A stretch of 64,000 nt of DNA, taken from the NCBI GenBank assembly GCA_964017185.1, contig OZ024874.1, positions 33,890,721-33,954,720 of the forward strand, read 5' to 3'. Positions 25,527 to 56,589 of this stretch are shown here, piece after piece (the stretch's first letter is position 1; every line of letters starts with the position of its first letter). This stretch comes from Rugalucina vietnamica (Eukaryota; Mollusca; Bivalvia; Lucinida; Lucinidae). The translations under genes and the position numbers were made by a program. The notes below the pieces were generated by a model. It saw nothing but the letters and a program-made list of their open reading frames with translations. It was not told the DNA's origin and did not search any database.

Positions 25527-26088
25527 GGTATCCGGACAAAATCCCCCCCGGACAGAATCCCCCCCCCCCACTCTTTTTTGATAACTAGGACAGAATCCCC
25601 CCAAGTATATCTTGCAAATAGGACAGAATCCCCCCACCCCTTCTCAGACAGAATCTACTTCAATAATTGAGCAATCTTTGAATTTATTTAGATATTATTA
25701 AGTTGACTATAATAAGTGGTGATTAGAGAAAATTAAATATGACAATTTGCGATACCTTTTACTATAACTTAGTAAATTACTCAACACATAGAAGTTTGTC
25801 TCACCTCATTTTTGCTATTAGCAGTAATTATAACATATTAATATGCAGCTTTCTTTAAAAAATAAAAACCAAACAACATAATTATCCAATCATTAGCAAA
25901 CAATGAATAAATAAACTTTTTTGATGCAAAAATAATTGACCTATGTAACAATATGATTATGGAGATTCTGCCTGGGAGTGTGGGGGGGATTCTGTCCTAT
26001 TTGCAAGATATACTGGGGGGGATTCTGTCCTCGTCAACAAAAAAGAGTGTGGGGGGATTCTGTCCAGGGGGGATTTTGTCCTACACTC
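25527..26088. mobile_element. Fold-back element, unit GGACAGAATCCCCCC, 9-bp TSD
   Basis: Flanked by the exact 9-bp repeat TAATTCAAC (25518-25526 and 26089-26097). The ends are GGTATCCGGACAAAAT and, read from the other side, GAGTGTAGGACAAAAT. The inverted arms (25527-25655, 25960-26088) contain four to five copies of the unit, separated by matching spacers. The 300-bp core is AT-rich with no frame. The 9-bp duplication suggests a Mutator-like superfamily. Confidence 0.88.
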
Positions 26089-26097
26089 TAATTCAAC

Positions 26098-26463
26098 ATC
26101 GCAAAGCTGCTGCAATGTTGTATGACTAATTTTTAACCTGTCCATGATTTCTGTACAACAGGACTATCTTGCAGCAGATATGCGACAGCTTTGTTTTCTT
26201 TTTTCTACCTTCTTGCTGCAAACACTACAATCTTCAAGATGTTCATGTAACTGTCTTGCAATGTCTACAACCTGTCTGAACATTTGCCAAATTTTCTACA
26301 ATTTACGTAAGGCACCTGTCATCTGTGACATTGCATGTGAATCAGGCTAAAAGGCTGTCACTTCTTTCACTATTTTTGATAATTCAGCTATAAATATGGT
26401 GAATTACAATTACTGTGTGTAAATAAGAAACACCTTTACAAGTTGGTCATTCAAAAATGGAGC
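26098..26463. other. Intronic sequence between fold-back elements
   Basis: No repeat family, RNA or conserved frame recognised. A 68-codon open frame at 26144-26350 has no recognisable motif. Confidence 0.45.
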
Positions 26464-26546
26464 TCAAAAGTCGAGTGTAGGACAAAACACCCCACGGACA
26501 AAACACCCCACGTCCATTTTGTTATAGGTGGACAAAAACCACCACA

Positions 26547-27286
26547 TTTCGCCTACTCCCATTTCGCCTACTCCCGTTTCGCCTATGATTTGTCCCATTT
26601 CGCCTACTCCCATTTCGACTACTCCCATTCCGCCTACACTAGAAATGTTCACTATTCCCGTTTCGCCTACTCATTCAATATAGATGAATAACAAGGTAAA
26701 ATGTTGTTTTAAATCATGATATGCATTTAAATATATATGCAAATACAATGTAAAATTTAACATTGTCATATTTTATTTTATTTACTTATTTTTTGTATGT
26801 GAAGAAAATGATTATTTAATGGGCTTGTGCAAACATTATAAACATTGCAAACTCATTGATTAGTGATCTAAATTAAATTTGTTTATTTTCACAATTAACA
26901 TTTTTATCTTATTTACTTATCTGTTTTGTTTGTGAAGAAAATGATTGTTTAATGAGTTTGTGCAAACATATAAACATTGCATGAATTAGTGATCTAAATT
27001 ATATTTGTTTATTTTAACAATTAAAACAAATGTACAATATTCACATAAAATCACATACAATATTCACATATTTGCATGTATATTCACTATAAAACATGTA
27101 AAATACAAATAAATGATAGTAAGTTAAAGAAAAAAGAAAAAAAAAATGTTTGCCGACAAAAAGTGCAGAGTAGGCAAAACGGGAATTCATTGAATGTCCA
27201 GAGTAGGCGAAACGGGAGTAGGCCAAACGGGAATAGGCCAAACGGGAGTAGGCGAAATGGGAGTAGGCGAAACGGGAACAAATTAT
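26547..27286. mobile_element. Fold-back element, unit TTTCGCCTACTCCCG
   Basis: The left arm 26547-26682 has about seven copies of the unit; the right arm 27165-27282 has the complement GTAGGCGAAACGGGA in about seven copies. The core between is AT-rich, with a duplicated phrase (GTGAAGAAAATGATT near 26800 and 26935). The ends and target duplication could not be resolved because it abuts other repeats on both sides. Confidence 0.65.
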
Positions 27287-27628
27287 TACCTTTGGATGAC
27301 CTTGACCTATTTTACGGCAAGGTCAACATAGGTCGCCCATGCATTTGAATGGGAAAAATTGTTAAAATGTCATTTGAAAGGCAAATCTTGCAGGAAATGG
27401 GCAAATGGACTGAAGGTAGGTAATTCTGAAAAAAATTTGGACCCTAGGGGTTGGTCTGCCCCCACCCTGGGGCAATATACATGTATATTAAAAAATATTC
27501 AAAGATCTTCTCTGAAACCACTTGGCCAATCAAAGCCAAATTTTATATGAAGCATCTATAGGAAGGGGGAACCAATTTGTTTATTAATAATCCAGGTCAC
27601 ATGACCAAGATGGCCACCATGCCCTTAT

Positions 27629-30600
27629 TAGCTCACCTGAGCCAAAGGCTCACAAGGTGAGCTTATAGGATGACCATGATCCGGCGTCCGTCCGTCGTCC
27701 GTCCGTCGTCCGTCGTCCGTCGTCCACAATTTCAAAGATCTTCTTCTCTGAAACCGCTTGGCCGATCTTGTTGAAATTTTATGTGGAGCCTCCTTGGGTA
27801 GTGGCATTTCAAGTTTGATCGCGAAATCCAGGTCACATGACCAAGATGGCCGCCACGCCCATATATGGTAAAAACCACTCAAAAATCTTCTTCTCCAGAA
27901 CCGGTGGGCCGATTTCCACGAAACTTCGTATGTAGCATCGGGGACTTCAGCCCATCATAGTTTGATAAAATGATGACCCTTGGATGACCTTGACCTATTT
28001 TACGGCAAGGTCAAATTTGGAAACATAGGCTTTTACATGGGAAAAAGTGAAAACTATGGATTTTTTGAAAACTATTGCAGCCTGAGGCCTGAAAAGTGGT
28101 AGATGCAAACAACTAATGGAGTAGATGAAGGTATGTGATTAATATAGGTCAAGGTCATATCTTGACCTTGGCCAGTCTGTTGTCCATACACACTTTTCAA
28201 AGATCTTCTTCTCTGAAACGGCTTGGCCAATCAAAGTGAAATTTTATGTGGAGCATCCATGGGTAGGGGAGACGAAAGTTTGATCGCGAAATCCAGGTCA
28301 CATGACCAAGATGGTGGCCACGCCCATATATGGTAAAAACCTCTCAAAAATCTTCTTCTCCAGAACTGGTGGGCCGATTTCCACGAAACTTGGTATGTAG
28401 CATCAAGGACCTCAGCCCATCATAGTTTGATAAAATGATGACCTTTGGATGACCTTGACCTATTTTATGGCGAGGTCAAATTTGGAAACATAGGCTTTTA
28501 CATAGGAAAAAGTGAAAACTATGGATTTTTTGAAAACTATTGCAGCCTGAGGCCTGAAAAGTGGTAGATGCAAACAACTAATGGAGTAGATGAAGGTATG
28601 TGATTAATATAGGTCAAGGTCATCTCTTGACCTTGGCCAGTCTGTTGTCCATACACACTTTACAAAGATCTTCTTCTCTGAAACTGCACGGCCAATCAAA
28701 GTGAAATTTTATGTGGAGCATCCATGGGTAGGGGAGACGAAAGTTTGATCGCGAAATCCAGGTCACATGACCAAGATGGCCGCCACGCCCATATATGGTA
28801 AAAACCACTCAAAAATCTTCTTTTCCAGAACTGGCGAGCTGATTTCCACGAAACTTGGTATGTAGCATCGGGGACCTCAGCCCATCATAGTTTGATAAAA
28901 TGATGACCCTTGGATGACCTTGACCTATTTTACGACAAGGTCAAATTTGGAAACACAGGCTTTTACATAGGTAAAAGTGAAAACTATGGATTTTTTGAAA
29001 ACTATTGCAGCCTGAGGCCTGAAAAGTGGTAGATGCAAACAACTAATGGAGTAGATGAAGGTATGTGTTTAATATAGGTCAAGGTCATCTCTTGACCTTG
29101 GCCAGTCTGTTGTCCATACACACTTTTCAAAGATATTCTTCTCTGAAACTGCTTGGCAAATCAAAGTGAATTTTTTTGTGCAGCATCCATGGGTAGGGGA
29201 GACGAAAGTTTGATCGCGAAATCTAGGTCACATGACCAAGATGGCCGCCACGCCCATATATGGTAAAAACCTTTCAAAAATCTTCTTCTCCAGAACCGGC
29301 AGGCCAATTTTCATGAAACTTGGTATGTAGCATTTGGGAATCCAGTCCATCATAGTTTGTTGAAATGATGACCCTATGATGACCTTGACCTATTTTACAG
29401 CAAGGTCAAATTTGGAAACATAGGCTTTTACATGGGAAAAAGTGAAAACTATGGATTTTTTGAAAACTATTGCAGCCTGAGGCCTGAAAAGTGGTAGATG
29501 CAAACAACTAATGGAGTAGATGAAGGTATGTGATTAATATAGGTCAAGGTCATCTCTTGACCTTGGCCAGTCTGTTGTCCATACACACTTTACAAAGATC
29601 TTCTTCTCTGAAACTGCACGGCCAATCAAAGTGAAATTTTATGTGGAGCATCCATGGGTAGGGGAGACGAAAGTTTGATCGCGAAATCCAGGTCACATGA
29701 CCAAGATGGCCGCCACGCCCATATATGGTAAAAACCACTCAAAAATCTTCTTTTCCAGAACTGGCAAGCCGATTTCCACGAAACTTGGTATGTAGCATGG
29801 GGGACCACAGCCCATCATAGTTTGATAAAATGATGACCCTTGGATGACCTTGACCTATTTTACGACAAGGTCAAATTTGGAAACACAGGCTTTTACATAG
29901 GTAAAAGTGAAAACGATGGATTTTTTGAAAACTATTGCAGCCTGAGGCCTGAAAAGTGGTAGATGCAAACAACTAATGGAGTAGATGAAGGTATGTGTTT
30001 AATATAGGTCAAGGTCATCTCTTGACCTTGGCCAGTCTGTTGTCCATACACATCTTCTCTGAAACTGCTTGGCAAATCAAAGTGAATTTTTTTGTGCAGC
30101 ATCCATGGGTAGGGGAGACGAAAGTTTGATCGCGAAATCTAGGTCACATGACCAAGATGGCCGCCACGCCCATATATGGTAAAAACCTTTCAAAAATCTT
30201 CTTCTCCAGAACCGGCAGGCCAATTTTCATGAAACTTGGTATGTAGCATTTGGGAATCCAGTCCATCATAGTTTGTTGAAATGATGACCCTATGATGACC
30301 TTGACCTATTTTACAGCAAGGTCAAATTTGGAAACATAGGCTTTTACATGGGAAAAAGTGAAAACTATGGATTTTTTGAAAACTATTGCAGCCTGAGGCC
30401 TGAAAAGTGGTAGATGCAAACAACTAATGGAGTAGATGAAGGTATGTGATTAATATAGGTCAAGGTCATATCTTGACCTTGGCCAGTCTGTTGTCCATAC
30501 ACACTTTTCAAAGATCTTCTTCTCTGAAACTGCTTGGCCAATCAAAGTGAAATTTTATGTGGAGCATCCATGGGTAGGGGAGACGAAAGTTTGATCGCGA

Positions 30601-33600
30601 AATCCAGGTCACATGACCAAGATGGCGGCCACGCCCATATATGGTAAAAACCACTCAAAAATCTTCTTCTCCAGAACTGGTGGGCCGATTTCCACGAAAC
30701 TTGGTATGTAGCATCAAGAAGCTCAGCCCATCATAGTTTGATAAAATGATGACCCTTGGATGACCTTGACCTATTTTACGGCAAGGTCAAATTTGGAAAC
30801 ATAGGCTTTTACATAGGAAAAAAGTGAAAACTATGGATTTTTTGAAAACTATTGCAGCCTGAGGCCTGAAAAGTGGTAGATGCAAACAACTAATGGAGTA
30901 GATGAAGGTATGTGATTAATATAGGTCAAGGTCATCTCTTGACCTTGGCCAGTCTGTTGTCCATACACACTTTACAAAGATCTTCTTCTCTGAAACTGCA
31001 CGGCCAATCAAAGTGAAATTTTATGTGGAGCATCCATGGGTAGGGGAGACGAAAGTTTGATCGCGAAATCCAGGTCACATGACCAAGATGGCCGCCACGC
31101 CCATATATGGTAAAAACCACTCAAAAATCTTCTTTTCCAGAACTGGTGAGCCGATTTCCACGAAACTTGGTATGTAGCATCAAGGTCCTCAGCCCATCAT
31201 GGTTTGATAAAATGATGACCCTTGGATGACCTTGACCTATTTTACGGTAAGGTCAAATTTGGAAACATAGGCTTTTACATAGGAAAAAGTGAAAACTATG
31301 GAATTTTTTGAAAACTGTTGCAGCCTGAGGCCTGAAAAGTGGTAGATGCAAACAACTTATGGAGTAGATGAAGGTATGTGATTAATATAGGTCAAGGTCA
31401 TCTCTTGACCTTGGCCAGTCTGTTTGTTGTCCACACACTTTTCAAAGATCTTCTTCTCTGAAACTCAAAGTGAAATTTTATGTGGAGCATCCATGGGTAG
31501 GGCAGACGAAAGTTTGATCGTGAAATCCAGGTCACATGACCAAGATGGCCGCCACGCCCATATATGGTTAAAACCACTCAAAAATTTTCTTCTCCAGAAC
31601 CGGTGGGCCGATTTCCACGAAACTTTGTATGTAGCATTGGGGACCTCAGCCTATCATAGTTTGATAAAATGATGACCCTTGGATGACCTTGACCTATTTT
31701 ACGACAAGGTCAAATTTGGAAACATAGGCTTTTATATAGGTAAAAGTGAAAACTATGGATTTTTAGCTCACCTGAGCCGAAGGCTCACAAGGTGAGCTAA
31801 TAGGATAGCCATGATCCGGCGTCCGTCCGTCGTCCGTCGTCCGTCGTCGTCCACAATTTCAAAGATCTTCTTCTCTGAAACCGCTTGGCCCATCTAGTTG
31901 AAATTTTATATGGAGCCTCCATGGGTAGTGGCATTTCAAGTTTGATCGTGAAATCCAGGTCACATGACCAAGATGGCCGCCACGCCCATATATGGTAAAA
32001 ACCCTTCAAAAATCTTCTTCTCCAGAACCGGTGGGCGGATTTCCACGAAACTTGGTATGTAGCATCGGGGACTTCAGCCCATCATAGTTTGATAAAATGA
32101 TGACCCTTGGATGACCTTGACCTATTTTACGGCAAGGTCAAATTTGGAAACATAGGCTTTTACATAGGAAAAAGTGAAAACTATGGTTTTTTTGAAAACT
32201 ATTGCAGCCTGAGGCCTGAAAAGTGGTAGATGCAAACAACTAATGGAGTAGATGAAGGTATGTGATTAATATAGGTCAAGGTCATCTCTTGACCTTGGCC
32301 AGTCTGTTGTCCATACACACTTTTCAAAGATCTTCTTCTCTGAAACTGCTTGGCCAACCAAAGTGAAATTTTATGTGGAGCATCCATGGGTAGGGGAGAC
32401 GAAAGTTTGATCGCGAAATCCAGGTCACATGACCAAGATGGCCGCCACGCCCATATATGGTAAAAACCACTCAAAAATCTTCTTCTCCAGAACCGGTGGG
32501 CCGATTTCCACGAAACTTGGTATGAAGCATCAAGGACCTCAGCACATCATAGTTTGATAAAATGATGACCCTTGGATGACCTTGACCTATTTTACGGCAA
32601 GGTCAAATTTGGAAACATAGGCTTTTACATAGGAAAAAGTGAAAACTATGGATTTTTTGAAAACTATTGCAGCCTGAGGCCTGAAAAGTGGTAGATGCAA
32701 ACAACTAATGGAGTAGATGAAGGTATGTGATTAATATAGGTCAAGGTCATCTCTTGACCTTGGCCAGTCTGTTGTCCATACACAGTTTTCAAAGATCTTC
32801 TTCTTTGAAACTGCGCGGCCAATCAAAGTGAAATTTTTTTTGAAGCATCCATGGGTAGGGGAGACGAAAGTTTGATCGCGAAATCTAGGTCACATGACCA
32901 AGATGGCCGCCATGCCCATATATGGTTAAAACCACTAAAAAATCTTCTTCTCCAGAACTGGTGGGTCGATTTCCACGAAACTTTGTATGTAGCATTGGGG
33001 ACCTCAGCCCATCATAGTTTGATAAAATGATGACCCTTGGATGACCTTGAATTATTTTACGGCAAGGTCAAATTTGGAAACATAGGCTTTTACATAAGAA
33101 GAAGTGAAAACTATGGATTTTTTTAAAACTATTGCAGCCTGAGGCCTGAAAAGTGGTAAATGCAAACAACTAATGGAGTAGATGAAGGTATGTGATTAAT
33201 ATAGGTCAAGGTCATCTCTTGACCTTGGCCAATTTGTTGTCCATACACACTTTTCAAAGATCTTCTCTGAAACTGCTTGGCAAATCAAAGTGAAATTTTA
33301 TGTGGAGCATCCATGGGTAGGGGAGACGAAAGTTTGATCGCGAAATCCAGGTCACATGACCAAGATGGCCACCACGCCCATATATGGTAAAAACCTTTCA
33401 AAAATCTTCTCCAGAACGGGCAGGCTAATTTTCATGAAACTTGGTATGTAGCATTTGGGACTCCAGCCTATCATAGTTTATTTAAATGATGACCCTATGA
33501 TGACCTTGACCTATTTTACGGCAAGGTCAATTTTGGAAACATAGGCTTTCACATGGGAAAAGGCGAAAACAAACTGTTGCAGCCTGAGACCTGAAAGTTG

Positions 33601-36600
33601 CTAGATGCAGACAACTAATGGAGTCAATGAAGGTAAGTAATTAATGAAGGCCAAGGTCATGTCTTGACTTTGGCCCAAGGTCATTTAAATATCAAAATTA
33701 AAATTATGGTTTTCTCAGAAATCACTGGGTTTGGAAACTATTGCAGCCTGAGACCTGAAACTTTGCAGATGCAGACAACTTATGAAGTCACTAAAGGTGT
33801 GTGAGTATTCAAGGTCAAGGTCATTTCATTATGACTTAATACTCCAAGATCAGGCTTCAGGTGAGCGTTCTCAGGACCAATGGTCCTCTGGTTTGAAAAC
33901 TATTGCAGCCTGAGGCCTGAAAAGTGGTAGATGCAAACAACTAATGGAGTAGATGAAGGTATGTGTTTAATATAGGTCAAGGTCATCTCTTGACCTTGGC
34001 CAGTCTGTTGTCCATACACACTTTTCAAAGATATTCTTCTCTGAAACTGCTTGGCAAATCAAAGTGAAATTTTTTGTGCAGCATCCATGGGTAGGGGAGA
34101 CGAAAGTTTGATCGCGAAATCCAGGTCACATGACCAAGATGGCCGCCACGCCCATATATGGTAAAAACCTTTCAAAAATCTTCTTCTCCAGAACCGGCAG
34201 GCCAATTTTCATGAAACTTGGTGTGTAGCATTTGGGAATCCAGTCCATCATAGTTTGTTGAAATGATGACCTTATGATGACCTTGACCTATTTTACAGCA
34301 AGGTCAAATTTGGAAACAAAGGCTTTTACATGGGAAACAGTGAAAACTATGGATTTTTTGAAAACTATTGCAGCCTGAGGCCTGAAAAGTGGTAGATGCA
34401 GGTATGTGATTAATATAGGTCATGGTCATCTCTTGACCTTGGCCAGTCTGTTGTCCATACACAGTTTTCAAAGATCTTCTTCTCTGAAACTGCTTGGCCA
34501 ATCAAAGCGAAATTTTAAGTGGAGCATCCATGGGTAGGGGAGAAGAAAGTTTGATCGCGAAATCCAGGTCACATGACCAAGATGGCGGCCACGCCCATAC
34601 ATGGTAAAAACCACTCAAAAATCTTCTTCTCCAGAACCAGTGGGCCGATTTCCACGAAACTTGGTATGTAGCATCAAGGACCTCAGCCCATCATAGTTTG
34701 ATAAAATGCTGACCCTTGGATGACCTTGACCTATTTTACAGCAAGGTCAAATTTGGAAACATAGGCTTTTACATAGGAAAAAGTGAAAACTATGGATTTT
34801 TTGAAAACTATTGCAGCCTGAGGCCTGAAAAGTGGTCGATGCAAACAACTAATGGAGTAGATGAAGGTATGTGATTAATATAGGTCAAGGTCATATCTTG
34901 ACCTTGGCCAGTCTGTTGTCCATACACACTTTTCAAAGATCTTCTTCTCTGAAACTGCTTGGCCAATCAAAGTGAAATTTTATGTGGAGCATCCATGGGT
35001 AGGGCAGACGAAAGTTTGATCGCGAAATCCAGGTCACATGACCAAGATGGCGGCCACGCCCATATATGGTAAAAACCACTCAAAAATCTTCTTCTCCAGA
35101 ACTGGTGGGCCGATTTCCACGAAACTTGGTATGTAGCATCAAGGAGCTCAGCCCATCATAGTTTGATAAAATGATGACCCTTGGATGACCTTAACCTATT
35201 TTACGGCAAGGTCAAATTTGGAAACATAGGCTTTTACATAGGAAAAAGTGAAAACTATGGATTTTTTGAAAACTATTGCAGCCTGAGGCCTAAAAAGTGG
35301 TAGATGCAAACAACTAATGGAGTAGATGAAGGTATGTGATTAATATAGGTCAAGGTCATCTCTTGACCTTGGCCAGTCTGTTATCCATACACACTTTACA
35401 AAGATCTTCTTCTCTGAAACTGCACAGCCAATCAAAGTGAAATTTTATGTGGAGCATCCATGGGTAGGGGAGACAAAAGTTTGATCACGAAATCCAGGTC
35501 ACATGACCAAGATGGCCGCCACGCCCATATATGGTTATAACCACTCAAAAATCTTCTTCTCCAGAACCGGTGGGCCGATTTCCACGAAACTTGGTATGTA
35601 GCATCGGGGACCTCAGCCCATCATAGTTTGATAAAATGATGACCCTTGGATGACCTTGACTTATTTTACGGTAAGGTCAAATTTGGAAACATAGGCTTTT
35701 ACATAGGAAAAAGTGAAAACTATGGAATTTTTTGAAAACTGTTGCAGCCTGAGGCCTGAAAAGTGGTAGATGCAAACAACTTATGGAGTAGATGAAGGTA
35801 TGTGATTAATATAGGTCAAGGTCATCTCTTGACCTTGGCCAGTCTGTTGTCCATACACACTTTTCAAAGATCTTCTTCTCTGAAACTGCTTGGTCAATCA
35901 AAGTGAAATTTTATGTGGAGCATCCATGGGTAGGGCAGACGAAAGTTTGATCACGAAATCCAGGTCACATGACCAAGATGGCCGCCACGCCCATATATGG
36001 TTAAAACCACTCAAAAATTTTTCTCCAGAACCGGTGGGCCGATTTCCACGAAACTTGGTATGTAGCATCGGGGACCTCAGCCCATCATAGTTTGATAAAA
36101 TGATGACCCTTGGATGACCTTGACCTATTTTACGGTAAGGTCAAATTTGGAAACATAGGCTTTTACATAGGAAAAAGTGAAAACTATGGAATTTTTTGAA
36201 AACTGTTGCAGCCTGAGGCCTGAAAAGTGGTAGATGCAAACAACTTATGGAGTAGATGAAGGTATGTGATTAATATAGGTCAAGGTCATCTCTTGACCTT
36301 GGCCAGTCTGTTGTCCATACACACTTTTCAAAGATCTTCTTCTCTGAAACTGCTTGGTCAATCAAAGTGAAATTTTATGTGGAGCATCCATGGGTAGGGC
36401 AGACGAAAGTTTGATCACGAAATCCAGGTCACATGACCAAGATGGCCGCCACGCCCATATATGGTTAAAACCACTCAAAAATCTTCTTCTCCAGAACCGG
36501 TGGGCCGATTTCCACGAAACTTGGTATGTAGCATCGGGGACCTCAGCCCATCATAGTTTGATAAAATGATGACCCTTGGATGACCTTGACCTATTTTACG

Positions 36601-37437
36601 ACAAGGTCAAATTTGGAAACATAGGCTTTTACATAGGTAAAAGTGAAAACTATGGATTTTTTGAAAACAATTGCAGCCTGAGGCCTGAAAAGTGGTAGAT
36701 GCAAACAACTAATGGCGTAGATGAAGGTATGTGTTTAATATAGGTCAAGGTCATCTCTTGATTTTGGCCAGTCTGTTGTCCATACACACTTTTCAAAGAT
36801 CTTCTTCTCTGAAACTGCTTGGCAAATCAAAGTGAAATTTTTTGTGCAGCATCCATGGGTAGGGGAGACGAAAGTTTGATCGCAAAATCCAGGTCACATG
36901 ACCAAGATGGCCGCCACGCCCATACATGGTAAAAACCTTTCAAAAATCTTCTTCTCCAGAACCGGCAGGCCAATTTTCATGAAACTTGGTTTATAGCATT
37001 TGGGACTCCAGTCCATCATAGTTTGTTGAAATGATGACCCTATGATGACCTTGACCTATTTTACGGCAAGGTCAATTTTGGAAACATAGGCTTTCACATG
37101 GGAAAAGGCGAAAACAAACTGTTGCAGCCTGAGACCTGAAAGTTGCTAGATGCAGACAACTAATGGTGTCAATGAAGGTAAGTAATTAATGAAGGCCAAG
37201 GTCATGTCTTGACCTTGGCCCAAGGTCATTTAAATATCAAAATTAAAATTATGGTTTTCTCAGAAATCACTGGGTTTGGAAACTATTGCAGCATGAGACC
37301 TGAAACTTTGCAGATGCAGACAACTTATGAAGTGAATAAAGGTGTGTGAGTATTCAAGGTCAAGGTCATTTCATTATGACTTAATACTCCAAGATCAGGC
37401 TTCAGGTGAGCGTTCTCAGGACCAATGGTCCTCTGGT
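27629..37437 (+). mobile_element. F-type Helitron-like element with a ~465-bp satellite
   Basis: The head TAGCTCACCTGAGCC is at 27629 and the tail CTTCAGGTGAGCG, hairpin GGACCAATGGTCC and CTCTGGT end at 37437. The body has about twenty tandem units of about 465 bp, each with GCCAGTCTGTTGTCCATACA, GTTTGATCGCGAAATC, AAGATGGCCGCCACG, CCATATATGG, TTGCAGCCTGAGGCCTGAAA and GTCAAGGTCATCTC. Identical 62-codon frames at 28620, 29550 and 30932 are repeat translations. A second element (31764-33892) is inserted in it. Confidence 0.82.
31764..33892 (+). mobile_element. Second F-type element nested in the F satellite
   Basis: It has its own head (TAGCTCACCTGAGCCG) and tail (GGACCAATGGTCC, CTCTGGT). Taking it out as T31764 to T33892 restores the run of six T in GGATTTTTTGAAAAC found in every other unit, so insertion left no target-site duplication. 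It contains about four units. Confidence 0.8.
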
Positions 37438-38677
37438 ATGGTAAAAACCCTTCAAAATTCTTCTTCTCAGGAACCAGCATCAGGGATTAGAGTACTACAA
37501 TGTGTTTATAAATTATGACCTTTGGATGACCTTGACATATTTTACGGCAAGGTCAACATAGGTCGCCCATGCATTTGAATGGGAAAAATTGTTAAAATGT
37601 CATTTGAAAGGCAAATCTTGCAGGAAAAGGGCAAATGGACTGAAGGTAGGTAATTCTGAAAAAATTTGGACCCTAGGGGTTGGTCTGCCCCCCACCCTGA
37701 GGCAATATACATGAATATTACAAAAATATTCAAAGATCTTCTTCTCTGAAACCACTTGGCCAATCAAAGCCAAATTTTATATGAAGCAGGGAACCAATTT
37801 GTTTCTTAATAATCCAGGTCACATGACCAAGATGGCCATCATTCCCTTATATGGTAAAAACCCTTCAAAATTCTTCTTCTCAGGAACCACTGGACCGATT
37901 TCAAGGAAACTTGGCATGAAGCTTTGGGGACTAGAGTACTACAATGTGTTTATAAATTATGACCTTTGGATGACCTTGACATATTTTACGTCAGGGTCAA
38001 CATGGGTCGCCAATGCATTTGAATGGGGAAAACTTTTAAAATGTCATTTTAAGTGAAAGTCTTGCAGGAAATGGGCAGTAGGACTGAATATTAATGATTC
38101 TGAAAAAAATTGGACCCCAGGGACTCATTTGCCCCAGCCCCGGGGCATTATGCATGTATATTACCATAATATTCAAACATCCTTTCCTCTGAAACCGTTG
38201 GCCAATCAAAGCCAAATTTCATATGAAGCATCTATAGAATGGGGAAATCAATGTGTATATAAATAATCCAGGTCACATGACCAAGATGGCCGCTATGCCC
38301 ATATATGGTATAAACCCTTCAAAAATCTTCTCCGGAACCGGTGGACCGATTTCGAAGAAACTTTGCATGAAGCATCGATGACTCAAGTACTACAATGTTT
38401 GTATAAATCATGACCCTGTGATGACCTTGACCTATTTTAAGGCAAGGTAAACATGGGTTGCCTATGTATTTGAATGGGTAAACTGTTAAAATGTCATTTG
38501 AAGGGAAAAACGTATGGACAGTATATTGATTATTCTGAAAAAAAAAATGGCCCAAGGGCTTCATCTGCCCCTATACTGAGACTATTTTCTATATCATTCG
38601 TATATACAGCAGATCTCAGGTGAGCGTTTACAGGACCATTGGTCCTCTTGTTTTTATTTTCGACTATAGGTGTGTGT

Positions 38678-39327
38678 GGGGGACGGACATGTTCCCCCTC
38701 GGACATTTGCCCCCTGTCCAAAAATGGCATGTAAGGACATTTGCCCCCTAACTCATCTAAGGGTTTGGACATTTGCCCCCTCATCAAATGTATAAAGGTG
38801 GACATTTGCCCCCCTCTCCCCAGTCAGGGGACGGACACACAGACAGTAACATTCTATTAGAGCTTTTGTCACAGAATTGCAAGAGCAATTACAAAGTTTG
38901 AGAACCAAGCTGATTTGCTAACCTGATTAGGCTTAACATTGCATATTGTCATTTTAGAATTATCATAATGTTTATACATGTAATTATTATTTGGAATGAA
39001 GTTTAGTACTATACATGCTGATTAAAATTGTTTTGAAATTACAGAAATATATAATTATTAGGACTCACTATTACATGTATTAACATCACTCAATTGTATG
39101 ATTTTAATTTGATAACTTGTCAGTGAAAATTGCACTTGCCCTAATAATTGTAAACCAAGCTTTAAATCCATTGATCAGGTGTAAACAGGGAGGGGGCAAA
39201 TGTCCTAGGTATGCACATTGATGAGGGGGCAAATGTCCAACTCTGCCAATCAGTTAGGGGGCAAATGTCCTTACATGCCATATTTGGGCAGGGGGCAAAT
39301 GTCCGGGGGGGAACATGTCCTACACTC
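38678..39327. mobile_element. Fold-back element, unit GGACATTTGCCCCCT, 9-bp TSD
   Basis: Flanked by GGTGTGTGT at 38669-38677 and 39328-39336, although both lie in GT-rich sequence. The ends are GGGGGACGGACATGTTCC and GAGTGTAGGACATGTTCC. The arms of about 150 bp pair closely, including matching spacers (GGCATGTAA between the same units). The core is AT-rich and non-coding. Confidence 0.82.
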
Positions 39328-39336
39328 GGTGTGTGT

Positions 39337-39731
39337 GTGTGGGGGGGGGGGGGGGGGGGGGGTAGGGGTCGAATCCGCTGGGTAGCCGTGTTGTGTCTTT
39401 GAGCAAGCAAATAACATTTGAAATGCTGACTGGGATGTGACGTAAACAAAAAATTAGTCGCCGTGATTATTGATTACTTTAATTTGACGCTAAATGGCAT
39501 AATGTGAGCTTTAAGTAATTGATAATTAAATCATTGGCATCATTAAAAACAAATATTTCAGATGGTTGATGAACCCTTGGTTAAATTAGATTGTTTGGCT
39601 CATTATGGTGATATGCGTTATCATCTTATTTTGTTTACCCATTTGATCACAAACACTTTTAGTGGCCAATTGAAAATTAACGACATTATAATTACTGCAA
39701 TTGTTGTCATAACTTCCATTTTAACAAATAT

Positions 39732-39774
<43 letters not shown>

Positions 39775-40214
39775 TCCAGGCCCTGGATTGAATTTGTGAT
39801 TGAATCACAAATTACAGATATGAAAAAATGAAAATAAGAAGAAAACAAAAACAGTTTGTGTATGATTGATGCAATACGTTGGCTGAAATTCCAGAACCAG
39901 ATGGGATAGATACAATGTAACGCCGACAACGAGCAAGTATATACAGAGGACAATGAAGATACAAACTACTCCATTTTATTTCTAATTGTAAATGTCGTAT
40001 TTATTACCTATTTTCAAATTTCAAAACAGCAAAGCAACGACTTGTTATTTTTTATTCAGGTTCTATATTTTGTTCAATGTTTCATGGCTAGCCTTGATAA
40101 ATTGACCCACATGTGGAATATCATTTAAATATTGAATAAAAGATATTTCTTTAATAATATGGACTTTTTATTCCTTCCTTTTTAAGAAAACGTTTGCATT
40201 ATCACTGAAAAATA
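39337..40214. other. Intronic sequence with microsatellites
   Basis: Starts with a GT/G tract (to 39362) and includes a TTTA microsatellite at 39729-39776. An 89-codon frame at 39562-39831 runs through the microsatellite and is not a gene. Confidence 0.5.
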
Positions 40215-40216
40215 CA

Positions 40217-40496
40217 TTTGCGCGAACAGTCCCGTGGGTGAATTGTCCCTTAATTTAAGAAAAAATAAGAACAAAACATTTTTCTCAGAAAAATCAAAGA
40301 TAAAAAATACATTTCCATTAAGTCCATAATTAGTTTAACATACACATTGCATTTACTTGATTAATTTTGATAACCAAAACCTTGAAATCATTTTTTGAAA
40401 AATGCGCGAACCGTCCCGGGAGGAAACGTCCCGTTCGAAAAATATTTTTTGCGCGAACCGTCCTGGGAGGAACTGGTTTTTGCGCGAAACGTCCTG
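40217..40496. repeat. GCGCGAACCGTCC short-unit array
   Basis: Copies of GCGCGAAC(C/A)GTCC lie at 40220, 40404, 40453 and 40482 with GGGAGGAA spacers. All are in the same orientation; I found no inverted partner arm. It abuts the inner left arm of the composite element at 40497. Confidence 0.5.
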
Positions 40497-40736
40497 GAGC
40501 CTGACAAAACACCCCACGCCCAAATGTATAATGTGGACAAAACACCCCATGCAGATTTTAAAATTAGGACAAAACCCCCCTCATGTTTTTGCAGTGTAGC
40601 AGATGGAAGCAGACAGGAGCATCCTAATGCAAACAACATGCATTTTCTGGTAATATCACTTCTTTTTCCTTATTTCAATTCTGTGTAGATGAATTGATAT
40701 TTTCTTTGATGCCATTCCAATTATCACTTATTTTAA

Positions 40737-41445
40737 ACCAGAGGACCATTGGTCCTGAGAACGCTCACCTGAAGCCTGATCTTGGAGTATTAAGTCATCA
40801 TGACATGACCTTGACCTTGAATACTCACACACCTTTATTGAGTTGTCTGCATCCGCAAAGTTTCAGGTCTCAGGCTGCAATAGTTTCCAAACCAAGTGAT
40901 TTCTGAGAAAACCATAATTTTAATTTTGATATTTAAATGACCTTGGGTCAAGGTCAAGAAATGACCTTGGCCTTCATTAATTACTTACCTTCATTGACTC
41001 CATTAGTTGTCTGCATCTATCAACTTTCAGGTCTCAGGCTGCAACAGTTTCCAAAATATCCATTGTTTTCGCCTTTTCCCATGTAAAAGCCTATGTTTCC
41101 AAAATTGACCTTGCCGTAAAATAAGTTAAGGTCATCCTAAGGTCATCATTTCAACAAACTATGATGGGCTGGAGTCCCAAATGCTACATACCAAGTTTCG
41201 CGTAAATCGGCCAGCCAGGTTCTGGAGAAGAAGATTTTTTGAGTGGTTTTTACCATAGTTGGGCATGGCGGCCATCTTGGTCATGTGACCCGATTTTGCG
41301 ATCAAACTTTTGTTCCCCCTACCCATGGACGCTCCACATAAAATTTCACTTTGATTGGCCAAGCAGTTTCAGAGAAGATCTTTGAAAAGTGTGTAAGGAC
41401 GACAGACTGGCCAAGGTCAAAAGATGACCTTGACCTAAATTACCT
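40737..41445 (-). mobile_element. Inverted 3' fragment of an F-type element
   Basis: Reads as the complement of the F tail (hairpin GGACCATTGGTCC, AGGTGAGCG reversed) followed by about one and a half F units, including GATGGCCGCCATGCC reversed. The 5' part is missing. Confidence 0.78.
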
Positions 41446-41709
41446 GTTCATTAAAAAAGTTTAAATCTTAAAGAAGTTCATATGCAGCTTTCATTCACTA
41501 ATGTAAAGAAATAAATACAATTTGGCCATGGTTTCATGTCCAAGTCATCAATTTTGTTATGTTATATGGGGAGCTAAAACATAAGACATTCTTATTGAAA
41601 TCAAATTTGGTTATGGTTTTTTGTCCAAGTCATCAATTTTCAGTCATGTTATATGATTCATATTGTCTTTGATAAAGAAAATCTAAGATTTGGTTACGCC
41701 TAAATTTTC

Positions 41710-42316
41710 GGTGCACGACACTTTGCCGAAAACCACTTCGCCGAAAAGACATTTCGCCGAAAAGACACAATGCCGAAAATTCTTCTCCGGTGCGACACTT
41801 CGCCGAAAGTTTTAAATGGTTAACAATGAGTCATGCTTGAGGGAAACATGTTATTAGATGAGCCTTAATTGTTTTAATGGGGACTTAATATCAGTTCCTT
41901 ATAATTACGTTTTATGTTTGTTTTACTTTGTTTGTTTATTTATGAAGTAAAATGTGCTCTTGCCAATTATAATACGATTAATTAATTAGGTTTATCGCCA
42001 TGTTTTGAATTGCTCATATATTAATTAGTTGATCGTCATAATTGGTCATTGATGTACCTAATCATTTCTTAATTACTTAAGAATTTAGAATGTCTCTTTT
42101 TATAGATTTATACAAATTTAATCGTTAAAATAATTCTAATGCTGTAGATTTAAGTAAAAGTTATGAAAAAATCACATTGTATGAAATACTCTTTAAAACA
42201 TCTTTCTCGGCATTTTTGCCGAATTTCGGCAATATTTCGGCGAAGTGTCGCATTCGGCAAAGTGTCGTTTCGGCGAAGTGTCTTTTCCGCAAAGTGGTTT
42301 TCGGCGTCACGGACCC
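41710..42316. mobile_element. Fold-back element, unit GACACTTCGCCGAAA, 9-bp TSD
   Basis: Flanked exactly by TAAATTTTC at 41701-41709 and 42317-42325. The ends are GGTGCACGACAC and GGGTCCGTGACG. The inverted arms (41710-41815, 42205-42316) contain GCCGAAAAGACA and GACACTTCGCCGAAA phrases; the core is AT-rich. It is nested in the core of the composite element at 26473-42542. Confidence 0.85.
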
Positions 42317-42640
42317 TAAATTTTCCACCCATCAATTTTCAGTCATGTCATATGGGGAACAAAGAAAAACATGAGGGGGGTATTGTCCTAATTTTGAAAT
42401 CTGCATGGGGTGTTTTGTCCACGTTATACTATTGGGCGTGGGGTGTTTTGTCAGCCTTCAAAAAAACATGTGGTGGTTTTTGTCCACCTATAACAAAATG
42501 GACATGGGGGGTTATGTCCGTGGGGTGTTTTGTCCATATACCTCAAAAGTCATGTGCACATGCAAAAATATAAAATGTAATATGCATAAGAGTTTTCTAT
42601 GTTTCTTGATTCTGATTTTATGCTTTCATCTTGTTTCCAG

Positions 42641-42770: not shown

Positions 42771-42776
42771 GTGAAG

Positions 42777-51431: not shown

Positions 51432-51562
51432 CTTAGTTAGAACATAAGGAACAATGTGGTACCAAAATTATTTGTGTTTTCAAAAAATTTTTGTTTTTGC
51501 ATTTTCACCGCCTACCTTGTGCATTGGAAAATGCCTGTGCATTGTATAAAATAAAAAGAAAA

Positions 51563-51668
51563 TTTGCTTTTTTTCGGTGAATACCAAATATATTTCATCT
51601 TGTGAAAATTCTGATGTTTTCAACTCACTTGATGAAATATATTTGGTATTCACCTCAAAAAAAGCAAA
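51563..51668. repeat. Hairpin with arms of about 37 bp
   Basis: The arms 51563-51599 and 51631-51668 pair almost perfectly (GTGAATACCAAATATATTTC core) around a 31-base loop. This could be a MITE remnant or a structured transcript. Confidence 0.7.
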
Positions 51669-52500: not shown

Positions 52501-53480
52501 TTTTTTCGACGAAATCGCACCAAATTCGCAAAACCACCATTCGCATTTTCTAGAAGTCAATTCGCAAAATAATGCGAATTTGCGACAGATGGACATCCCT
52601 GATGTGGAGCATGGTTAGGAAGGAAGAATGAAAGTTTGTATAAAGTTTGATCAAGGTCACATGACCAAGATAGCCGCCATGGCTATAGCAAAAACCTTTA
52701 AAAATCTTCTTCTAAAGTTCTTCAGAACCAGAAGGGCTATGATTTTGAAACTTGGCTTGAAGCGTCAGACAATGGAGCTCTACAATGTTTATATAAATCA
52801 TGATGCTGGGATGACCTTGACCTATTTTACAGCAAGGTCAACATAGGTCTCCCATTAATTTGAATGGGGAAAATTGTTAAAATGTCATTTGAAGCGCAAA
52901 ACTTGCAGGAAATGAGCAAATGGACTGAAGATATATGATTCTTAAATACATTAAAACCCCCCACCTGCCCCCACCCTGGTGCAATATACATGTATATTAC
53001 CATAATATTCAAAGAATGATTTCTTCTGTGAAAATGCCTGCCAATCGAAGCCAAAGTTTATAGGAAGCATCTATATAAAGCGGGAACCAGTGTGTTTATA
53101 AATAATCCAGGTCACATGACCAAGATGGCCACCATTGCCCATATATGTTATAAACCCCTTCAAAAATCTTCTTCTCTGGAACAGATGAACAGATTTCAAG
53201 GAAACTTGGTATGTAGTATTAGAGAATAGAGTATGACAATGTGATTATAAATCCTGAACCTGTGATGACCTTGACCTTTTTTAGAGTAAGGTCAACATAG
53301 GTTACCTAAGTATTTGAATGGGGAAAACTGTTAAAATGACATTGGAAGGGAAAAACTTGCAGGAAATTGGCAAATGGACAGAATATTGATTATTTAATAA
53401 AAAAAAAAAACAAGTATGGCCCCAGGGCATCTTCTGCCCCTGCACTGGGGTAATATTCCATAATATTCAAACATGTTTAT

Positions 53481-55287
53481 TAGCTCACCTGAGCGGAAGG
53501 CTCACAAGGTGAGCTTATAGCATAGTAGTCGAGCCGGCGTCCGGCGTCCGTGCGTCCGTCCGTTCACATTTTCAAACTTTAATATCTCTGAGACAACAAG
53601 GCTGATCGCAATTAAATTTTATCTGAAGCATCATTGAGGAGGGGGAAAGGTTGCATTAGGTTTTGGGCCAGGTCGGATCAGAACTCTGGTTTCCATGGCA
53701 ACAGATAGCTCCCATTGAGTTATAATGGGGAAAATGTTGTGGCCACTCTAGCAACTTCATTTTTGATTGGATCTTCCTCATTCTTGCAGGTAACAAGGAC
53801 AACCATAACATCTCGGATGAGTTCGAATTTCGGCCAGGTTCGACCTCGGAGTTAGCTGCCCTTGAGCGTCTGGAAAAATCCCCATAGACTTATAATGGAA
53901 AAAATGTTGTGGCCACTCTAGTGCCTTCATTCTTCTTCATTCTTGCAGGTAACAAGGATAACCATAATATCTCGAATGGGTTCGAATTTCAGCCAGATCC
54001 GACCTCTGACTGTGGAGTTAGCTGCCCTTGAGTGTTTGAAAAATCAATATTTTGTGTTGTGGCCACTCTAGCACCTTCAATTTTGATTGGATCTATTTCA
54101 TACTTGGAAGTAACAAGGATAGCTATAACATCTTGGATGAGTTTGAATTTCAGCCAGATTCAACCCTTGACTGCAGAGTTATCTGCACTTGACTGTGTGA
54201 AAAATCAATATTTAGTGTTGTGGCCACTCTAGCGCCTTCCATTTATTTGGATCTTCTTTATTCTTGGAAGTAACAAGGACATTCGTAACATCTCAGATGA
54301 GTTACAATTTCGACTAGATCCGCTCTCTGACTGCGGAGTTATCTGCCCTTGAGTGTTTGAAAAATCAATATTTAGTGTTGTGGCCACTCTAGAGCTTTCA
54401 ATTTTGATCGGATCTTCTTCATACTTGGAAGTAACAAGGATAGCCATAATATCTCGGATGATGTCGAATTTCAGCCAGATCCAACCCTTGACTGCAGAGT
54501 TATCTACCCTTGACTGTGTGAAAAATCAATATTTAGTGTTGTGGCCACTCTAGCGCCTTCGTTTTTATTCGGATCTTCTTTATTCTTAGAAGTAACAAGG
54601 ACATCTATAACATCTTAGATGAGTTCGAATTTCGACCAGATCGGGCCTCTGACTGTGGAGTTATCTGCCCTTGACGGTTTGAAAAATCCATATTTTGTGT
54701 TGTGGCCATCTTTGTTTTTCAGTGTATCTTCTTCATTCTTGCAGGTAACAAGGATAACTACAATATCTCGGATGAGTTCAAATTTCGACCAGATCCGACC
54801 TCTGACTGCGGAGTTATGTGCCCTTGAGTGTTTGAAAAATCAATATTTTGTGTTGTGGCCACTCTAGCATCTTTGTTTTTCAGTGGATCTTCTTCATTCT
54901 TGCAGGTAACAAGAATGACTACAATATCTCAGATCGAATTTCGGCCAGATCTGACCTCTGACTGCGGAGTTAGCTGCCCTTTAGTGTTTGAAAAATCAAT
55001 ATTTTGTATTGTGGCCACTCTAGCGCCTTCAATTTTGATTGGATCTTCTTCATTCTTGGAAGAAACAAGGATAACCATAACATCTTGGATGAGTTCGAAT
55101 TTGAGCCAGATTTGACCCTGGACTGCAGAGTTAGCTGCCCTTGAATGTTTGAAAAATCAATTTTTAGTGTTGTGGCCACTCCAGTATCTTCAATTTTGAT
55201 CAGATTTTCAAAAAAAAAAAAAAAAAAAGTCCAGTGACTGTACTTGTTGATTCTCAGGTGAGCGATCATTGCCCTTGGGCTACTTGT
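53481..55287 (+). mobile_element. C-type Helitron-like element, second copy
   Basis: The head TAGCTCACCTGAGCGG, the GTCCGGCGTCCGT stretch, about nine units of about 165 bp (TGTTGTGGCCACTCTAGCG, GATCTTCTTCATTCTTG, GACTGCGGAGTTA), and the tail CTCAGGTGAGCGATC, GCCCTTGGGC, ACTTGT. A-rich tract at 55208-55228. The subrepeats have diverged from the copy at 10571 at many sites. Confidence 0.78.
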
Positions 55288-55341
55288 TTGTAAATATAGC
55301 AGATCTCAGGTGAGCATTTACAGGACCATTGGTCCTCTAGT

Positions 55342-55470
55342 CAAACAGTCCTCAATCAACCCTCGCCTATGGGCTACTATACTGACAGACTTTGAAAATG
55401 CAACACTTTACATTGGTTATAATTTGCTTAAAACTGATTTAACTGATTAAAACTGAAGCAAAAATAAACA
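55342..55470. repeat. FGDPND-type repeat, copy 1 (3' part)
   Basis: CCTCAATCAACCCTCGCCTA and GGGCTACTATACTGACAG continue the sequence interrupted at 48166; compare the inverted copy at 62706-62850. Confidence 0.55.
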
Positions 55471-55472
55471 TA

Positions 55473-55659
55473 CAGTTCAACCTCATTATAACGCGTCTCA
55501 TTATAGTGCAGTTTTCAATATAACACGGTCATGTCATGGCTCCCAAATCAATTATTTTGTTATATGCCTATTGTAAATAACCTCATTATAACACGGTTCA
55601 CCTATAACACGGTCTGTTTCCATGGACCCCAAAGATAGCGTTATAATGAGGTTGACCTG
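55473..55659. mobile_element. Intact pogo/Tigger-like MITE, TA target
   Basis: The ends CAGTTCAACCTCATTATAAC and, read inward, CAGGTCAACCTCATTATAAC are flanked by TA at 55471-55472 and 55660-55661. The length is 187 bp with no frame. CAG ends and TA duplication are typical of the pogo group of Tc1/mariner. Confidence 0.82.
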
Positions 55660-55661
55660 TA

Positions 55662-56141
55662 GTATCTTGAATCTTAACGCCATACACAATATTTATCCAT
55701 AAAAAAACTGTTAGCTGAATTCTTTGCTAAAGCTGCTATCTTTAGCGTCATCTAGACATATCCTTTTTATGAAGAAAATCTAACATTGGCTATAAGAAAG
55801 GGATTTTATGAAAGCAAACCATCTTTGGTGATAGGTAACAACCTAAAGAAAAAGCAAAATAAACTCTGGCACTTTCTTTCAATGTTGTTTAAGATACTAG
55901 TGTTTTTCGCTGACGTCAAACGTAATATTCAAAATTAAAATATTCAAAATTAAAGACACGCTTTCTCTAAATATAAACAATCAGGTTGGTTTGGTCATAG
56001 CATAATGGCCAAGTGTTTGAGTCATGTTTGGTCGGGGCCAAAGTCTCCTGTGTACTTAGCCAGTACTGTGTGGAGCTGAAAGTACCGTGCTCAATGACAC
56101 CACACAGCAATGATAAGTATCGAACCTGATTAGCAAATGTA
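55662..56141. other. Intronic sequence without recognised features
   Basis: AT-rich, no conserved frame, RNA or repeat family recognised. Confidence 0.45.
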
Positions 56142-56149
56142 GTACAAAA

Positions 56150-56589
56150 GGATCCATGACGTTTCGTCTAAATGACATTTCGTCTAAAAACCATTTCGTC
56201 TAAAGGACATTTCGTCTAAATGACATTTCGTCTAAAAGACGTTTCGTCTAAAGGACATTAATTTTCGTCTAAAAGACATTTCGTCTGAATGCCATTTCGT
56301 CTAATGGACATTTCGTCTAATACGACATGTCGTCTAAAAGTGTCTAAAAATTTGGTCTAAAATCCTTAATTATTCATTAGTTCTTAACTTTTATTTAGAC
56401 CAAATGTCACACCTGCTTGATTTTTTAGACGAATTGTCCATTAGACGAAATGACCTTTAGACGAAAAGTCATTTAGACGAAATGTCCTTTAGACTAAATG
56501 TCCTTTAGACGAAATGTCCTTTAGACAAAATGGCTTTTAGACGAAATGGCATTTAGATGAAATGGTTTTAGACGAAATGTCCTGCACCC
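56150..56589. mobile_element. Fold-back element, unit GACATTTCGTCTAAA, 8-bp TSD
   Basis: Flanked by GTACAAAA (56142-56149 and 56590-56597). The ends are GGATCCATGACGTTTCGTC and GGGTGCAGGACATTTCGTC. The left arm has about a dozen copies of the unit (56150-56362); the right arm has the complement TTTAGACGAAATGTCC (56405-56589). The core is only about 40 bp. Confidence 0.85.

What the first reader, a model, noticed from the sequence alone, without database searches (positions are those of the whole stretch)
25527..56589. A fold-back superfamily with shared ends but element-specific short-unit arms
Five elements (25527-26088, 26473-42542, 38678-39327, 41710-42316, 56150-56589) each have inverted arms built from a different unit of about 15 bp, yet their ends agree. 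Taking boundaries from the flanking direct repeats, nine of ten ends start with G and have GAC at positions 9-11; the tenth has it at 8-10. Three ends are exactly GAGTGTAGGACA and a fourth is GGGTGCAGGACA. Direct repeats: TAATTCAAC, TCAAAAGTC, GGTGTGTGT and TAAATTTTC (9 bp), GTACAAAA (8 bp). 9-bp duplications are a Mutator (MULE) hallmark; assignment to that superfamily is inference. The pattern suggests one transposase accepting very different arms as long as about 12 terminal bases are kept.
Basis: partly seen in the sequence, partly recalled or inferred. Interest (0 to 1): 0.9.

Follow-up and report, generated by a model that had tools for sequence, protein, structure and literature searches.

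The report
Fold-back transposons sharing asymmetric end tags
The five fold-back structures are small defective jumping genes of a known kind (Mutator-type, with zinc-finger transposases), and several families in this genome differ in their arm sequences but keep similar short end tags and a similar spacing of repeated sites.

Summary
All five elements belong to multi-copy transposon families. GAGTGTAGGACA occurs 495 times in this 1.09-Gb genome, 38 for the reversed control. Of 48 consecutive hits, 24 have an exact 9-bp duplication 7 bp outside the opposite arm's GGAC. E4's duplication is 8 bp and its first base is C. E2 is a family-B element split by ~14 kb and by E4. Ends are asymmetric: one GAGTGTA-like cap, one family-specific cap.

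Mutator assignment is now direct for family A: a MULE gene lies between family-A arms, caps GGTATCC/GAATGTA, with a 9-bp duplication; its 96%-identical sister shows FLYWCH and MULE domains. "One transposase for all arms" is not supported: family C and E4-type ends accompany other MULEs, 30–38% identical to A's. None was found by the listed B or E5 ends.

Geometry is also shared: GGAC sites at 8, 24, 58, ~90 in A, B and C, continuing to ~123 and ~155 in B and C, though A and C spacers match at only 12/51. Tm1 and Muta are the known kind.

The parts
25527..26088 (.). E1: family-A non-autonomous fold-back; caps GGTATCC (left) and GAGTGTA (right, reverse strand); unit GGACAGAATCCCCCC
   Evidence: family genome-wide; GAC of sites at 9, 25, 63, 96 (left) and 9, 25, 60, 93 (right)
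25518..25526 (.). 9-bp target-site duplication of E1, left copy TAATTCAAC (right copy 26089-26097)
26473..26547 (+). E2 left arm, outer part: family-B element start, cap GAGTGTA, unit GGACAAAACACCCCAC
   Evidence: aligns to positions 1-75 of the 1,074-bp B copy L042 at 100%
26548..40501 (.). ~14-kb insertion/rearrangement inside the E2 left arm: another fold-back (CGCCTACTCCC units, 26545-27277), 465-bp satellite arrays, E3; on the right a one-armed array (about 40405-40501) with cap-like end GGCTCCAGGAC on the reverse strand. Right boundary uncertain between 40494 and 40501
   Evidence: no simple duplication seen; 7-14 bp of the B arm is missing depending on the boundary
40502..41708 (+). E2 inner left arm and interior (family B)
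   Evidence: L042 positions 83-329 and 597-860 align to 40495-40737 and 41444-41709; inverted partner 42365-42460 (I4)
42317..42542 (-). E2 right arm, cap GGTATAT (reverse strand); 9-bp duplication TCAAAAGTC at 26464-26472 and 42543-42551
38678..39327 (.). E3: family-C fold-back; caps GGGGGAC (left) and GAGTGTA (right, reverse strand); unit GGACATTTGCCCCCT; 9-bp duplication GGTGTGTGT inside a GT-rich stretch (weak by itself)
   Evidence: family members L032 and L037 have 9-bp duplications in non-repetitive sequence
41709..42316 (.). E4: fold-back inserted into E2's interior; caps CGGTGCAC (left) and GGGTCCGT (right, reverse strand); unit GACACTTCGCCGAAAA; 8-bp duplication TAAATTTT at 41701-41708 and 42317-42324
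   Evidence: empty-site sequence GGCCTAAATTTTCCAGCC in family-B copy L029
56150..56589 (.). E5: fold-back with caps GGATCCAT (left) and GGGTGCAG (right, reverse strand); 16-bp unit GACATTTCGTCTAAAT; duplication GTACAAAA (8 bp) at 56142-56149 and 56590-56597
   Evidence: 189 exact matches of its right-end 19-mer genome-wide, 0 for the reversed control

Best explanation
These are non-autonomous, cut-and-paste Mutator-like (FLYWCH-MULE, Phantom/Muta-type) fold-back transposons of five families. Each element has an asymmetric pair of 7-8-bp caps followed by an array of GGAC-headed ~16-bp sites. The proposed mechanism is as follows. The transposase's DNA-binding part reads several arm sites at fixed spacing. 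Its catalytic core acts at the cap next to the first GGAC and leaves 8- or 9-bp target duplications. Different arm families have or had different MULEs. Caps and site spacing stayed alike by descent and constraint, while units and spacers diverged together with the transposase. Shown: insertions, duplications, caps, the family-A MULE element, the family-C MULE relic, E4-type ends (by position) around four MULE loci, and site positions. Inferred: arm sites as binding sites, co-divergence as the cause, membership of B and E5 in the same group (by architecture only), and any present-day activity.
For: GAGTGTAGGACA 495 vs 38 control hits; 24 of 48 exact 9-bp duplications at the predicted offset. 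Family-A MULE: left arm starts GGTATCCGGACAAAATCC with CTCTAAGAC before it. The prediction TACAYTC+CTCTAAGAC had exactly one match in the genome, 7.1 kb away on the same contig in the right orientation, 0 for the reversed control, and the letters there are the expected arm and end. MULE match at this locus over cut-off (35.5 bits); FLYWCH E=2.2e-10 and MULE E=4.7e-8 in the 96%-identical sister copy. Family-C element C2:21982260-21983351 has GGTCATTTC at both ends and a MULE C-terminal match inside. E4-type caps: 5 of 100 listed places (of 158), at four loci, have a MULE match on the inner side within 10 kb, 0 on the outer side, about 0.08 expected on each. GGAC sites at 8, 24, 58, ~90 in A, B and C, and at ~123 and ~155 in B and C. 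Muta families of Aedes: 8-9-bp duplications, FLYWCH in 13 of 14 families, 9-15-bp subterminal repeats in 10 of 12 long-TIR families (PMC5225508, passages).
Against: No MULE was found near the listed ends of B (100 of 129) or E5 (100 of 189); one MULE lies 4 kb outside an E5 end. In family A the MULE's C-terminus faces the GGTATCC cap, whereas in C and the four E4-type loci it faces the GAGTGTA/CGGTGCAC cap, so cap polarity is not constant. The family-A MULE's right end is GAATGTAGGGC, two bases off GAGTGTAGGAC. E4-type MULE association rests on position only; no letters were read there. One control place (GAGTGTAGGACT, C5:68062643) also has a MULE match 4.2 kb inside. A fold-back in the same window, 26545-27277, does not follow the cap rule. 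The window's E4 right arm is off the site grid. No binding or transposition was tested.
Confidence: 0.8

Rival explanations
1. One transposase mobilises all five families; only about 12 terminal bases are needed and the arms are free to change.
For: Families A, B and C share GAGTGTAGGAC exactly; no MULE was found at the listed B or E5 ends, so these may borrow another family's transposase.
Against: C and E4-type ends are associated with MULEs only 30-38% identical to A's in the C-terminal part; unit heads and, in A-C, site spacing are kept, so the arms are not free.
Confidence: 0.12
2. The caps are shared because recombination or gene conversion among nested elements swaps ends, not because the transposase demands them.
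For: Elements are nested in one another here (E4 in E2, E3 in the E2 insertion), and the arms are tandem arrays.
Against: Each family keeps its own second cap (GGTATCC, GGTATAC, GGGGGAC) while sharing the first, in 24 insertions with 24 different duplications.
Confidence: 0.08
3. Fold-back elements of another superfamily: Rehavkus (MULE outgroup, PHD finger) or Galileo-like P elements (THAP).
For: Both can have long inverted arms; Rehavkus makes 9-bp duplications (PMC6446971, table passage).
Against: The family-A gene has FLYWCH and MULE domains; no PHD or THAP match in the six pieces scanned, which do not cover the whole gene.
Confidence: 0.03
4. Non-mobile hairpins or satellite fragments whose flanking repeats are chance.
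For: The window is rich in satellites and simple repeats; E3's duplication lies in GT repeats.
Against: 24 of 48 and 12 of 21 exact duplications at fixed boundaries; an unoccupied counterpart of the E4 target in copy L029.
Confidence: 0.01

Closest known systems
Tm1 (Mutator/Foldback, Phantom-type) of root-knot nematodes, PMC3169594 (passages, section 5 and part 1 of section 11 read)
   Same: Asymmetric 7-bp motifs A1 and A2 at the two ends, GGA at positions 8-10, then a ~14-bp unit array beginning with C; 8-10-bp, mostly 9-bp, duplications in 45 of 53; FLYWCH+MULE transposase; mostly non-autonomous copies.
   Different: Cap and unit sequences differ; Tm1 is described with one unit consensus, whereas here several unit types share a cap. 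The direction in which A2 is printed is not certain from the text, so no letter-by-letter claim is made.
Muta1-Muta14 of Aedes aegypti, PMC5225508 (passages only)
   Same: Many MULE families in one genome (13 of 14 with FLYWCH), short subterminal tandem repeats of 9-15 bp in 10 of 12 long-TIR families, 8- or 9-bp duplications from one element, 8-10-bp terminal motif, hundreds of non-autonomous derivatives.
   Different: The passages seen do not describe a cap shared across families, asymmetric caps, or a fixed site grid; Muta1 repeats follow each other with 3-4-bp spacers, whereas A-C here skip every second step after the first two.
Phantom clade of MULEs, PMC6446971 (passages only)
   Same: 8-10-bp duplications, variable TIRs (18-613 bp), FLYWCH in some members.
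   Different: Clade placement of the MULEs here was not tested by a tree.
Galileo (P superfamily), PMC3688188 (passages only)
   Same: Long repetitive arms; [quoted passage not shown]
   Different: THAP domain and P-type transposase.
TU elements of sea urchin (recalled, 1980s papers; not found in the library)
   Same: Recalled: fold-back arms of ~15-bp repeats, 8-bp duplications, modular structure.
   Different: No sequence could be compared here.

Membership tests
FLYWCH-MULE fold-back (Phantom/Muta type) | MULE transposase domain between the arms | tested here: met
   PF10551 at C2:47335856, 35.5 bits over cut-off 27.6, between family-A arms; E=4.7e-8 in sister copy L069. Met for A; C has a C-terminal relic by similarity; E4-type by position; B and E5 not found.
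FLYWCH-MULE fold-back (Phantom/Muta type) | N-terminal FLYWCH zinc finger | tested here: met
   PF04500 E=2.2e-10 on L069:6728-6928 minus strand, upstream of the MULE exon; family A only
FLYWCH-MULE fold-back (Phantom/Muta type) | 8-10-bp target duplications | tested here: met
   9 bp in 24 of 48; 8 bp in 12 of 21 E4-family members; family-A MULE element CTCTAAGAC at both ends; E5 only in the window copy
FLYWCH-MULE fold-back (Phantom/Muta type) | Subterminal short tandem repeats inside the inverted arms | tested here: met
FLYWCH-MULE fold-back (Phantom/Muta type) | Transposase placed in the Phantom clade by a tree | not tested
   Full transposase sequence was not put together and no reference set was held
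Tm1 | Asymmetric 7-bp caps, GGA at 8-10, unit array | tested here: met
   GAGTGTA/GGTATCC + GGAC in A; GAGTGTA/GGTATAC in B; GAGTGTA/GGGGGAC in C. In E4 and E5 the cap is 8 bp before GAC
Tm1 | Tm1 cap sequences CGGTTAA and CCTACCC | tested here: not met
   Caps read differ; hence same architecture, not the Tm1 family
Rehavkus | PHD finger transposase | tested here: not met
   No PHD match in six scanned pieces of the family-A gene (not the whole gene); FLYWCH instead
Galileo / P superfamily | THAP domain transposase | tested here: not met
   No THAP match in the same six pieces

The most novel reading that the evidence does not exclude
The transposases of this group read a fixed ruler: an asymmetric 7-8-bp cap for the catalytic step and GGAC sites on a ~16.4-bp grid for the DNA-binding step (steps 0, 1, 3, 5 in A, B and C, and 7 and 9 in B and C; consecutive steps over the first ~50-100 bp of the left arms of E4 and E5). 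Ruler and cap are held fixed while the letters of sites and spacers drift together with each transposase. Several families can then coexist in one genome without cross-mobilising each other.
Probability: 0.33. Interest if true: 0.6.

Novelty: new member of a known kind. Interest (0 to 1): 0.45.

Why it matters
Fold-back elements are often described one family at a time, and a 2013 paper calls it untested whether the tandem repeats of Foldback and Phantom elements are transposase sites (PMC3688188, passage). A genome with several families that share caps and site spacing but, between A and C, hardly any spacer sequence, and with different MULEs attached to at least A and C (and, by position, E4-type ends), helps separate the part of the arm that must be kept from the part that may drift. 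The host was not identified; if it were a mollusc, this would give defined ends where a 2019 survey table lists none for MULE-Mollusca (PMC6446971, passage).

Tried and rejected
Single 16-kb element for E2: rejected, because a 1,074-bp family-B copy aligns to four separate pieces of it. 9-bp duplication for E4: rejected in favour of 8 bp. One transposase: not supported. MULE locus C7:25860805 first looked like an E5 partner because an E5-type element lies 4 kb away; the E5 cap faces away from it, and the gene's own arm is family A. Long family-B copies as carriers of a B transposase: L031, part of a 9.7-kb pair of B ends (C1:63616842 and 63626502, pairing assumed), holds a reverse-transcriptase ORF, and no MULE match or 55 lies there. 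Other matches of the cap-free duplication scan, mainly at 58.1-59.1 kb and 28.4-36.5 kb, are palindromic or satellite arrays. The Pfam scan of three other long ORFs gave retroelement domains only.
Full report
What was checked. The five elements are present with the flanking repeats reported. Within 3 bp of the stated boundaries the matched flanks share 9, 10, 10, 11 and 8 bp, and the 20 mismatched combinations share at most 6.

GAGTGTAGGACA has 495 exact matches against 38 for the reversed pattern. I took the first 48 in contig order, without selection (L001-L048). 42 of 48 are followed by a short-unit array: 21 of type A (GGACAGAATCCCCCC), 16 of type B (GGACAAAACACCCCAC), 5 of type C (GGACATTTGCCCCCT); 6 have none, where the control predicts 3.7. 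An opposite arm (24 of 40 bases alike) was recognised in 33 of 48. 24 of 48 have an exact 9-bp duplication placed exactly 7 bp outside the opposite GTCC (13 A, 9 B, 2 C; 24 different duplications), and all 20 other offsets together give 1. Without the arm filter 27 were found. Four more have one mismatch (L009, L022, L030, L048); L030 and L048 share the same flanks and look like one event. The cap is tied to the following A: GAGTGTAGGAC followed by any other base is only mildly enriched, 201 against 147.

Asymmetry of the ends. In the 24 exact-duplication copies the end opposite GAGTGTA is GGTATCC in family A, GGTATAC in B and GGGGGAC in C. The window copies agree, E2 having GGTATAT. E4 and E5 are likewise asymmetric, CGGTGCAC/GGGTCCGT and GGGTGCAG/GGATCCAT. 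The shared GGAC at 8-11 is the head of the first arm unit, so the cap proper is 7-8 bp.

E4 and E2 corrected. Twenty relatives of E4 were read whole with 40-bp flanks. E4's cap 13-mer occurs 158 times, 4 for the reversed control. Family-B copy L029 shows the unoccupied E4 target GGCCTAAATTTTCCAGCC. Family-B copy L042, 1,074 bp, aligns to the window in four pieces, showing that E2 was split by ~14 kb in its left arm and by E4 in its interior. The left-arm insertion begins in a sixth fold-back (CGCCTACTCCC units) and ends near 40494-40501 in a one-armed array with cap-like end GGCTCCAGGAC, whose last 7 bases may belong to the B arm; no simple duplication is seen. The sixth fold-back does not follow the cap rule in the window or in L010.

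The MULE of family A. The genome has 59 PF10551 matches. Two loci, C7:25860805 and C2:47335856, are 96% identical over 2.8 kb. At C7 a family-A arm ends GAATGTAGGGCAAAATCC beyond the 5' side of the gene, and no opposite arm was found in the 9 kb read. At C2 the 3' side has the left arm GGTATCCGGACAAAATCCCCCCCGGACAAAATCC preceded by CTCTAAGAC, and the 5' arm is broken by another insertion. From the left flank I predicted the right end as TACAYTC followed by CTCTAAGAC. It has one match in 1.09 Gb, at C2:47340696, 7.1 kb from the left end and correctly oriented, and the letters there are the expected arm, ending GAATGTAGGGC. Exons of the C7 copy give FLYWCH (E=2.2e-10) and MULE (E=4.7e-8) domains; four other pieces gave no family. 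Whether either copy is intact was not asked; the match between them stops inside the gene's 3' part on the C7 side.

Other families have other MULEs. The 207-residue C-terminal part of the A protein was searched in the genome: 48 matches. A 37%-identical match at C2:21982596 lies 0.5 kb inside a GAGTGTAGGACA end carrying family-C units. The other end, predicted as GGTCATTTC+GGGGGACGGAC, was found 1.09 kb away at C2:21982251. With up to 2 mismatches there were two further matches, one exact at C3:43254032 (a duplicated locus, by the look of it) and one with 2 mismatches, and 1 for the control. Of 100 listed E4-type caps (of 158), five, at four loci, have a MULE match within 10 kb on the inner side and none on the outer side; about 0.08 was expected on each side with 84 MULE loci. 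Their matches to A's C-terminal part are 30-38% identical. The same count for the first 100 GAGTGTAGGACA gave 1 inside (the family-C case), for 100 of 129 B ends 0 and 0, for 100 of 189 E5 ends 0 inside and 1 outside, and for the control cap 1 inside (C5:68062643). In the five C and E4-type cases the MULE's C-terminus faces the GAGTGTA/CGGTGCAC cap; in family A it faces the other cap. I cannot explain that.

A shared ruler. Sites ([GT]GAC[AG], counted from the element end) peak at 8, 24, 58 and 91 in A (21, 15, 11 and 8 of 21 GAGTGTA-side arms), at 8, 24, 58, 90, 123 and 155 in B (16, 13, 12, 12, 12, 12 of 16), and at 8, 24, 58, 90, 123 and 156 in the 3 C arms on the other side; of 5 C arms on the GAGTGTA side only 2 show 23, 57 and 122. 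The A MULE's left arm has 8, 24, 59, 92, 125, 158. These are close to steps 0, 1, 3, 5, 7, 9 of a ~16.4-bp grid. E5's left arm has GAC-type heads at 9, 25, 41, 57, 73, 89, 105 and then 126; E5's right arm at 9, 40, 72, 88, 104, 120; E4's left arm at 9, 24, 40, 56; E4's right arm at 9, 35, 51, 68, off the grid. A and C spacers are 12 of 51 identical, near one in four; A and B 21-22 of 51; B and C 17-18 of 51; two C subtypes 17 of 51. Copies out of register were left out of these consensus sequences (kept: 10 of 21 A1, 6 of 15 A2, 12 of 16 B1, 8 of 9 B2, 3 of 3 C2), no shuffles were run, and A consensus beyond about 105 is no longer arm. Kept spacing with drifted letters fits transposase sites read at fixed distances, as binding assays suggest for Galileo's tandem repeats (PMC3688188, passages). 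For MULEs it is inference.

Comparison with the known. Tm1 has the same plan: asymmetric 7-bp caps, GGA, a ~14-bp unit array, 9-bp duplications and FLYWCH+MULE (PMC3169594). Muta families of Aedes show many MULE families in one genome with short subterminal repeats and 8- or 9-bp duplications from one element (PMC5225508, passages), which fits the mix of 8 and 9 bp here. So this is a new set of members of a known kind. Seven library searches listed no paper that, from title, abstract start or the passages read, describes a cap or site grid shared across such families; most subscription papers are not held, and the Phantom paper itself was not read. Tetris (PMC4079207) and the bivalve transposon survey (PMC10294476) were seen in listings only.

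Noticed in passing
window 27730-37220: Arrays of a ~465-bp satellite lie inside the E2 insertion; a fold-back (E3) lies just beyond them.
   Followed up: no
window 58100-59114: Arrays of the palindromic unit ACTGAAATTTCAGTG, inverted onto themselves; they make up much of the cap-free duplication scan.
   Followed up: partly
window 59734-62200: ~185-bp units with GTCCAGGGCGG followed, in opposite orientation, by GGACAGGTTACCCCCC-type units: possibly another large fold-back family.
   Followed up: no
window 26545-27277 and L010 (element positions 937-1528): A sixth fold-back with CGCCTACTCCC units; in L010 it sits in family B at about the same place where E4 sits in the window copy.
   Followed up: partly
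window 40405-40501: One-armed array of GGACGTTTCGCGCAAAAA-like units whose end GGCTCCAGGAC fits the cap rule; no partner arm was seen, and the last bases may be family-B arm.
   Followed up: partly
L031 (C1:63616642-63622842): A family-B end with a 902-residue reverse-transcriptase/endonuclease ORF behind it; a matching opposite end lies 9.7 kb away at C1:63626502, pairing assumed.
   Followed up: partly
C2:46932505 and C2:46941863: The E4-type cap CGGTGCACGACAC occurs in inverted orientation on both sides of a MULE, 9.4 kb apart, unlike the asymmetric small copies; could be one element or two.
   Followed up: no
L071 from about position 158 (C2:47338157): The right arm of the family-A MULE element is interrupted by a repeat beginning ATAGCCCCGCTTTGAAAAAGTGGGGCTAT, itself an inverted repeat.
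   Followed up: no
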